From NCBI GenBank assembly GCA_022410635.1, contig JAJVDF010000167.1, positions 1,290,806-1,354,805 on the forward strand: DNA of 64,000 nucleotides. The letters are read 5' to 3'. The stretch comes from Tretioscincus oriximinensis (Eukaryota > Chordata > Lepidosauria > Squamata > Gymnophthalmidae). The notes under the pieces are model-generated. The model ran no database searches, was not told the origin of the DNA, and worked only from the letters and a program-made list of their open reading frames with translations. The position numbers and the translations under genes were made by a program. Below are positions 24,901 to 27,900 of this stretch, in pieces. How positions within the stretch are numbered: position 1 is the first letter of the stretch; every line of letters begins with the position of its first letter.

Positions 24901-27900
24901 CTCCCACCTATGGTTGCTGGCGTGCTATGCATGCAGACGGACGGGCGTCTGTGTAAAGCCCAAAAAAGCCAGTAAGTTCACTTTTTACCCCATGTGAATG
25001 CAACCTTGGATAAAAAGAAGCTAAAGGAAAATAATGAACAAAATATCACATCCATATCTTAGTTAATGCAAATAGGAACCAGGATGTTTCCTCCCTTCTG
25101 TGATCAAAAACAAGAAGTGGATTCAGGCATATGGCAAACAAAGCCCCAGATGTATCAATGAAGCAATATTATTTAGATCATTACTACTCCAACTTTCTGA
25201 TTCCACAACTCACTTTTGGGCAAACCTTTTGTTTGTAACCTTCTGACTCCCATACTGATATATACACAAAAATAAAAGTCCCTGTAAAACTGGAAATGGT
25301 CATTTTTCTCAAAGCCAGTAGAATACTATCCACCTTCCACTTCCATCTTCTCCACTTGCCTGACTACAGTCCTTAGCATTCTCTGCAAGCCTGCATACAA
25401 TTCACAAGCTTTCTCTCCGAGCCAAGAGCCAATGAGTTTTTACAATCGCAGGTTTTTTTTGGACTACAAAATGCTGGCTGCTGAATTGGATAATATGCGT
25501 TGGGCAGTTACTCCGCAGCAAAGGATCTTTTGAGCGAATGAAACATGTGAGTCTGGGGGGCAGGCAGAAGGTAATGCCGTGTTCAATGCGCAGGAAGTCA
25601 TGTTTGGGGGTTGGGCCTACGTAAGAAACGGCAAATTCTGTTCCCTTGCCAAACCGATAAATCAGTCTTATTTTTTATACCACCTTACCTTTTTGGAAAT
25701 TACCCAAGGCAGTTTCTAGGAAACAGACATACAATTGCATATTACACAGAAGTAAACNATCCATCAAACATAAAATGTAAAATTAAAAACCTTATGAGAA
25801 AGGCAAGGCAGTGGGATGCCAAACTCTCCTTTCCCTCTCCAAAACATATAATACTAGTATATTGTTCTCTGCTTTGGAGATGTTGTTTTTTTGATATAGG
25901 GCAGGACGTAAACATGGATGGTCTCAGTGTAGGTTACACAATAAAATGGAAAAAACATGCTAAAATGAATACAGGTGTATAAATGAAAGAGAGAAGAACA
26001 GGGTTTTTTTCTTATTTATTTACATTTATACCCCACCCTATACCGGAAGGTCTCAGAGAAGCCAACAATAAAAACAACAGTACGCAATTGACATATTAAA
26101 ATGTATCAAAACCATATCTGAAGATGGGAAGGGAAATGGATTTCTTCAACCAAAAGCCAGTGTGAAGGAGTTAATCTTTGCTAGCTGTCTGAATGTATAA
26201 AGTTTTTTTTTTAATTTAAATTTTATTAAACACTTAAAAAATATAACCACATAGCGGATAAGCACACAAAATATTACAAATTATACAATTAATACACTTA
26301 AAAATAAAAATATTCCTTACATATGACTTTCATCATAATTTGTTTACCTACCTTTCATTCTCAACACATAACATAAACCCTTATTACTTATACTCTCAGA
26401 TTCTCCAATGTGAACCTCATATTCACACTTTCTAACTTACCATCCCAACTTACAGAGCCTGAACTTCTATCATTTACATTCCTTTTAATAATTTTTCTAT
26501 TTCCTTTTATAAACTTTCTCTATTTTCTAGTTCTAAATTAACATCTCAGCAACATCTGAATTTATAAAGTGGTGAAGTTTGACTGTGGTAAAGAGGACTG
26601 GAATCATTCTATGCCCTGCCCTGGAATCTTGCTCTCTCTATAGAACCAAGAGAAAGATGAGGGGTAAATCTCCAAAAATTGCATGGAGATCACATCTGCT
26701 CTGCACCATGCAGCTACTGCTGCTACTTGCCAGTATTTATTTGCAAGTATGGAATTGTTTGCGTTCATTTCTTTTTTTTGTTTATATGCTATTTAATCAC
26801 AGTATTGGGCAGGTGGATATAGTTGCTGCTGTTCTACTATCCTTGTGTAACGGTTGGCTAACCTTATAGCTTCTTCAGCACTTGAAATACCAGAAATGAA
26901 GTGTTATGGGTAGCTTTATTGTATGTGTTTTTCTGCAGGAAGTATAATGGTCACATTGAAAACAAGCCACTTACCATTCCTAAAGACATTGATCTTCAGT
27001 TGGAAACAAAATCTATTACTGAAGTNGATGCATTAGGTAAGAGCTTGAATGAGTGTCTTAAAGTTTGTTTAATCCATCTGAATGATGTTGTTGAAAGTAG
27101 TTTTAACCCAGATAAAAATTAATGTTAACATCCACAGTAAAGCCAGAAATATTAATGTTTTTAAATATATACTATTTCCTGATGAACTTGGAATGGTTTA
27201 CAAAACATAGGAAATGCATAGGAAATCTAGCGTAGGCTGACCAGATGACCCCTTTTTTTTGGTGGGGGGTTGAAAACCCGGTTTTGGGGTGCCTCCAAGT
27301 TTTTGCTAAGGGAAATGTTTTCAAAAAAAGTTTTTTTTAAAAAACATTTTTTTATTTTGTTTCCTCAGAAAAAAACGGGAGGCACCCCAAAAACGGGTCC
27401 CGTCCCCCCAAAGGGGTCATCTGGTCAGCCTAAAATCTTGTAGTACTTTAGAGACTAACAAGAAATAGGATATTTCAGAGAAATAGCCGTGTTAGTCTAG
27501 CAGAAAGTCCAGCAAAGGGGCTAGCAGCACTTTGAGACTAACTTGAGAAAAGTGGTTGGCATAAGCTTTCGTAGACAGGTCTACTGAGATCCCTCAGCAT
27601 CTGAAGAAGTAGACCTGTCTACGAAAGCTTATGCCAACCACTTTTCTCAAGTTAGTCTCAAAGTGCTGCTAGCCCCTTTGCTAGAAATAGGATAGACAGC
27701 ATGAGCTTTTGTAGACAAGTCTGTTTCTTCTTTCTACGAAAGCTTATGCCACCTACTGTATCCTGTTTCTTGCTGAATTTTAAAGTGTTACAAGAGCCCC
27801 TTGCTGGATTTTCTGGACCCAAACCAACATTGCTATTTCTTTAAAAATGAGCATGGAAATAACTTAAATCATAATAATGCTATAAAATGCTTACAGTGAT

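What the first reader, a model, noticed from the sequence alone, without database searches (positions are those of the whole stretch)
27597..27634. 38-nt hammerhead-ribozyme-like core
The + strand reads GCAT-CTGAAGA-A-GTAGA(CCTG)TCTAC-GAAA-GCTT-ATGC. GCAT/ATGC pair as stem I, GTAGA/TCTAC as stem II, with CUGANGA and GAAA in the right order. Penelope-like retroelements are reported to carry minimal hammerhead motifs. Deviations: one extra A lies between CUGANGA and stem II, and stem III is reduced to essentially the A-U closing pair. Cleavage would fall after GCTT, before ATGC.
Basis: partly seen in the sequence, partly recalled or inferred. Interest (0 to 1): 0.75.

Follow-up and report, generated by a model that had tools for sequence, protein, structure and literature searches.

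The report
Penelope retroelement hammerhead-ribozyme motif
The 38 letters are a minimal hammerhead-ribozyme motif in the terminal repeat of a very abundant Penelope-like retrotransposon, a known kind of feature; whether it cuts RNA is untested, and the genomic copies show no sign of having been made from cut RNA.

Summary
The motif is real and exactly where stated (27597-27634, +). A generic minimal-hammerhead descriptor finds four sites in the window, all in one repeat family and all with the extra A; 200 shuffles give none. The repeat is the terminal repeat (pLTR) of an endonuclease-bearing Penelope-like element: in the window's own genome 28 of 30 GIY-YIG loci examined have it 220-434 nt downstream on the same strand, and 5 of 5 ORFs scanned carry RVT_1 plus GIY-YIG. 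Optional tail, target-site duplications and inverted pLTRs also fit. The kind is known: the Anolis relative has a protein-assisted hammerhead (PMC11167929). The extra A is fixed: 18,537 exact cores with it, 6 without. Rfam gives no hammerhead hit. This copy lies in a head-to-head foldback whose transcript folds into a long hairpin. At most 6.7% of 15,775 exact genomic copies can begin at the predicted cut (control). So cut RNA is not the main template of these copies, and self-cleavage is unshown. New member of a known kind; modest interest.

The parts
27597..27634 (+). hammerhead-like core: stem I GCAT/ATGC, CTGAAGA, extra A, stem II GTAGA/TCTAC, GAAA, predicted cut between 27630 and 27631
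27473..27585 (-). left arm of the foldback: pLTR copy ending in the long tail, 5'-truncated inside the motif
27586..27682 (+). right arm of the foldback: pLTR copy with the full motif and the short 3' end
27461..27472 (.). left target-site duplication AGAAATAGGATA
27683..27694 (.). right target-site duplication AGAAATAGGATA
27427..27467 (-). outer piece of the left arm of an older, decayed pair into which the younger foldback was inserted (weak match, E 0.23; reading partly by eye)
27677..27730 (-). inner piece of the left arm of the older pair (overlaps the duplication)
27730..27842 (+). right arm of the older pair, with a decayed tail (profile match to 27811; end by eye)
50022..50121 (-). 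single pLTR copy with full motif (50077-50114)
50140..50145 (-). TATA-like box 32 nt upstream of CATCTGAAG in the copy at 50022
59561..59641 (-). left arm of a second foldback, short 3' end, GAAA changed to AAAA
59678..59796 (+). right arm of the second foldback, long tail; shared flank of 13-14 bp at 59547-59560 and 59798-59811
61752..61850 (-). single pLTR copy with full motif (61808-61845), first pair of stem II G-U; TATA-like TTATAC at 61872-61877
8561..8660 (-). divergent pLTR copy with full motif (8618-8655), stem II ATAGG/TCTAT, GCTC before the cut

Best explanation
The motif is the minimal (stem-III-less) type I hammerhead-like core in the pLTR of a GIY-YIG-endonuclease-bearing Penelope-like retrotransposon, in a 1.54 Gb genome whose element proteins resemble those of turtles and lizards. 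In two copies it sits about 31 nt after a TATA-like box, so it probably lies at the 5' edge of the transcript (inferred), and some 51-90 nt upstream of the two places where reverse transcription appears to start. The most likely action, by analogy with the Anolis element and not shown here, is weak cleavage between GCUU and AUGC helped by the element's own protein. The short retrocopies are made from RNA that is uncut at this site (shown as an upper limit). The copy at 27597 is a non-coding relic: a head-to-head pair of truncated pLTRs inserted with a 12-bp target-site duplication, whose transcript would fold into a hairpin that hides the motif.
For: Core and order of parts. Same-strand pLTR after GIY-YIG in 28 of 30 loci and after the RT plus GIY-YIG ORF in 8 of 10 longer loci. 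Two 3' ends about 32 nt apart, as in the Penelope tail; the distal end lies 89-90 nt after the predicted cut, and the Anolis figures (RT start +111 to +118, cut +26) give 85-92. Target-site duplications in 25 of 28 foldbacks by script. TATA-like box in 2 of 4 copies tested. Extra A: 18,537 with, 6 without. Upper limit on cut-site starts: 14,716 of 15,775 copies continue upstream of the cut, control block 15,775 of 17,569; 0 of 17 copies in the window and six arbitrary 10-kb stretches start within 3 nt of the cut. Hairpin of -153 kcal/mol.
Against: No Rfam hammerhead match at any threshold used. No stem III. Extra A at the core. Covariation in nine window copies no better than shuffles. In the pLTR of the copy at 50022 the best fold has stem II but not stem I. 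A hammerhead dimer of two 38-mers is computed at -11.7 kcal/mol, worse than two monomers (2 x -7.5) and than the best dimer (-24.9). Cleavage not tested.
Confidence: 0.85

Rival explanations
1. It is a Penelope pLTR segment but no longer a ribozyme in this lineage: the extra A and the missing stem III make it inactive, and the letters persist as promoter, protein-binding or early-ORF sequence.
For: Fixed extra A; no cut-site ends among short copies; no covariation; weak stem I in context; insertions elsewhere in the core weaken activity in PMC3088659.
Against: CUGANGA, GAAA and both stems are intact in very many copies (18,537); one or two inserted nt next to CUGANGA do occur in known hammerhead alignments (PMC10085705); the Anolis element also shows no cut-site reads or need for cleavage, yet its motif cleaves with protein.
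Confidence: 0.35
2. The motif works as a dimer: AGCU of two copies pairs into a shared stem III, in tandem elements or between molecules.
For: GAAAGCTT holds the palindrome AGCT; dimeric action is reported for newt motifs and, by title, for Penelope motifs.
Against: Computed hammerhead dimer less stable than monomers and than another dimer; the recurrent pairs are head-to-head, which forms a hairpin and not two tandem ribozymes.
Confidence: 0.2
3. Chance resemblance in unrelated repeat DNA.
For: Energy of the isolated motif only z -1.40; no Rfam hit.
Against: 0 descriptor hits in 200 shuffles; the repeat belongs to a Penelope-like element, a group already reported to carry such motifs.
Confidence: 0.03

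Closest known systems
Poseidon element PAc of Anolis carolinensis and its hammerhead (Frangieh et al. 2024, PMC11167929; parts 1 and 2 of 4 and passages seen)
   Different: PAc letters not seen, so presence of the extra A there is unknown; in PAc the ORF begins at stem II, here the motif reads AAG TAG at that place; species differs
Penelope elements of the rotifer Adineta vaga (PMC3846280; passages seen)
   Same: inverted, mostly head-to-head pLTRs, optional 31-bp tail on one of them, short target-site duplications, TATA-like box in the pLTR
   Different: here short pLTR-only pairs are common and the duplications found are 11-17 bp, mostly 12-13; the hammerhead is not discussed in the passages seen
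Minimal type I hammerheads of Penelope-like elements (Cervera and de la Pena 2014; Lunse et al. 2017: nothing seen, not held, known from reviews PMC6155905, PMC7761336, PMC7229834, passages)
   Same: hammerhead core lacking stem III, in pLTRs
   Different: whether those sets include this family or an inserted A could not be checked

Membership tests
Hammerhead ribozyme (minimal, Penelope kind) | CUGANGA and GAAA in order with stems I and II | tested here: met
   extra A between CUGANGA and stem II
Hammerhead ribozyme (minimal, Penelope kind) | A15.1-U16.1 and cleavage triplet NUH | tested here: met
   GAAAGCUU/AUGC read directly; stem III otherwise absent
Hammerhead ribozyme (Rfam models) | match to a hammerhead covariance model | tested here: not met
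   none at gathering level in 64 kb, none at E up to 10 in 7 kb or 201 nt; no known Penelope motif was run as a positive control
Hammerhead ribozyme (minimal, Penelope kind) | covariation supporting the stems | tested here: inconclusive
   one both-sided change in nine copies, shuffles as good in 241 of 500; 53 A-U copies genome-wide, single-change counts not answered
Hammerhead ribozyme (minimal, Penelope kind) | self-cleavage at the predicted site | not testable with these tools
   needs bench work; genomic 5' ends show no cut-site starts
Canonical Penelope-like element | RT and GIY-YIG domains in one ORF | tested here: met
   5 of 5 ORFs scanned in related loci; the window copies themselves hold no such ORF among the 10 of 26 ORFs scanned
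Canonical Penelope-like element | pLTR next to the ORF | tested here: met
   28 of 30 loci, 8 of 10 longer loci
Canonical Penelope-like element | optional 30-40 bp tail, inverted pLTRs, target-site duplications | tested here: met

The most novel reading that the evidence does not exclude
The family has fixed a one-nucleotide insertion beside the catalytic core that keeps the hammerhead silent until the element's protein binds, so template RNA stays whole through reverse transcription; the absence of cut-site ends in thousands of copies would be the footprint of that switch.
Probability: 0.15. Interest if true: 0.65.

Novelty: new member of a known kind. Interest (0 to 1): 0.38.

Why it matters
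The role of Penelope hammerheads is called a mystery in a review (PMC7761336, passages). This genome holds thousands of near-identical copies, so the position of their 5' ends is a natural record of whether cut RNA was copied. The counts say that mostly it was not, in agreement with the Anolis work, and they point to a fixed core insertion whose effect can be tested directly.

Tried and rejected
Relatives outside the genome: pattern scans of viral contigs (2 stretches) and genome contigs (14 stretches) gave matches without the hammerhead core or the pLTR flanks, judged by eye as chance; no match in phages or plasmids. The idea that the 27473-27682 foldback is a transposing unit of its own was set aside: 28 foldbacks have 20 different centres and different flanks, though three centres recur (in 6, 3 and 2 loci), so copying of some units is not excluded. 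Dimer action was modelled and not supported. An 89-nt DNA query starting at the cut found no candidates and was replaced by exact pattern counts. The foldbacks were picked by similarity to the query, so their lack of cut-site ends is biased and is not used as evidence. Two counts of single changes in the stem II closing pair, needed to judge the 53 double changes, did not complete. A resemblance to repeats of other reptiles was recalled and not tested.

Full report
Observation. The window reads GCAT-CTGAAGA-A-GTAGA-CCTG-TCTAC-GAAA-GCTT-ATGC at 27597-27634 on the + strand. A descriptor without family-specific letters finds it and three more sites, at 50114 (-), 61845 (-) and 8655 (-); 200 dinucleotide-preserving shuffles of the window give none. 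All four have one extra A between CUGANGA and stem II. Rfam gives no hammerhead, at gathering level over 64 kb or at E up to 10 over 7 kb and over 201 nt; the matches listed are other families, mostly microRNA models lying on inverted repeats. No known Penelope hammerhead was run as a positive control, so this negative is weak.

What carries it. The four sites are copies of one repeat. A profile built from six copies finds nine matches in the window at E 1e-6 or better, two of them parts of an older decayed pair. The window lies in a genome of 1.54 Gb. GIY-YIG, the endonuclease of canonical Penelope-like elements, has 150 scored matches there, all above the cut-off, out of 2213 candidates. Of 30 loci cut out around the best of these, 28 have the repeat 220-434 nt downstream on the same strand; L025 and L030 do not, and 8 of 30 have an inverted copy upstream. 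Of 10 longer loci 8 have it after the ORF; the other two, L062 and L064, have only an inverted copy upstream, as does L060 besides. Five of five ORFs scanned hold RVT_1 and GIY-YIG. An intact descriptor hit occurs in 15 of the 30 loci, in two of them (L028, L038) only on the opposite strand. The best named protein relatives are turtle sequences at about 62-68% identity; one gecko sequence matches 74% over half of the query (120 best of 1019 listed).

Structure of the insertions. The motif at 27597 sits in the right arm of a head-to-head pair, left arm 27473-27585 (-), right arm to 27682 (+), with AGAAATAGGATA on both sides; 0 of 600 random pairs of places share 12 bp or more. A second pair is at 59561-59796 with a shared flank of 13-14 bp. 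Twenty-seven further loci show the same design; counting the window there are 20 different centres in 28, three of them recurring, and a script finds duplications of 11-17 bp in 25 of 28. By eye the other three have one too if the long end runs some ten letters further. Of the first 100 exact places listed, neighbours within 400 bp are head-to-head 18 times, tail-to-tail 0 and same-direction 2 times; in the list it is 18, 1 and 1. Copies end at one of two 3' places about 32 nt apart. This is the optional tail known from rotifer and Anolis elements. The distal end lies 89-90 nt after the predicted cut, where the Anolis numbers give 85-92 (my arithmetic). The outer ends of the pairs are 3' ends, which fits priming on both target strands, as the Anolis protein does in vitro, followed by joining of the two cDNA ends; PMC3846280 suggests self-priming on an antisense template instead. 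My data do not decide between these.

The extra A. The exact core with the extra A occurs 18,537 times in the genome and the same core without it 6 times; reversed-pattern controls are 0. In the mixed sample of fetched loci, 63 of 86 motif-like places pair stem II with exactly one inserted A, none without an insert, 15 have no stem II of 4 bp and 8 an altered core. The A is thus ancestral to the family. [quoted passage not shown] PMC3088659 finds that an insertion after A6 lowers activity. Which applies here is unknown.

Is it cut? A template cut between GCTT and ATGC would leave copies that begin with ATGC. Exact copies of the 42 nt beginning at ATGC number 15,775; 14,716 of them (93.3%) also have the six preceding letters AAGCTT. 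As a control, adding the six letters ATGCCA on the other side of the cut to a 36-mer keeps 15,775 of 17,569 (89.8%). So at most 6.7% of these copies can start at the cut, and there is no excess over ordinary decay. In the window and six arbitrary 10-kb stretches, 0 of 17 copies start within 3 nt of the cut; their matches start 16-37 nt upstream of it, the profile itself reaching 39 nt upstream. Only 6,698 exact copies reach back to CATCTG, more loss than simple decay at the rates above would give, so many copies are probably truncated inside the motif. This test bears on short copies of one sequence variant; full-length copies would weigh little in it. It agrees with the Anolis work, where uncut RNA was the dominant substrate and no reads ended at the presumed cut site.

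Folding. Alone, the 38-mer forms stems I and II. In the pLTR of the copy at 50022 the best fold keeps stem II but not stem I. A + strand transcript of 27473-27690 folds at -153 kcal/mol into one long hairpin that takes up the second half of the motif, so the copy of the finding is unlikely to act. Covariation across nine window copies is not above shuffles. The closing pair of stem II is G-C, G-U or A-U in different copies, with 53 exact A-U copies genome-wide, but the single-change counts needed to judge this did not complete.

Abundance. Nine matches in the 64-kb window and eight in 60 kb from six arbitrary stretches, in four of the six, suggest of the order of 100,000 copies or more in the genome; this is a crude extrapolation.

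Conclusion. It is a new member of a known kind, with a fixed core insertion and a large natural data set that argues against cut RNA as the main retrotransposition template. Self-cleavage remains to be shown.

Noticed in passing
27230-27432: A roughly 200-bp inverted-repeat stretch (GGCTGACCAGATGACCCC ... GGGGTCATCTGGTCAGCC) that draws many weak microRNA-model hits, perhaps a small non-autonomous DNA transposon, directly beside the older pair.
   Followed up: no
29350-29690: A second large inverted repeat, two 158-nt arms 87% complementary with 25 nt between, unrelated in sequence to the pLTR; identity unknown.
   Followed up: no
1966-14902 and 47591-54967: Several repeated copies of a non-LTR retrotransposon; ORF pieces at 5574-6020, 9985-10962 and 10963-11598 (-) match RVT_1. 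It looks CR1-like from recall only.
   Followed up: partly
L023, L072, L074, L077, L078, L083: Six foldbacks share one perfectly palindromic centre ACTTCTTCAGATGCATCTGAAGA, as if both cDNA ends stopped at the same letter and joined over GC; this letter lies about 31 nt after the TATA-like box.
   Followed up: partly
L020, L074, L077, L079, L082: The long 3' end of some copies runs further than CTGAAA (TAGTCAA stands before TTTCAG in the printed orientation), so a further RT start site may be in use.
   Followed up: no
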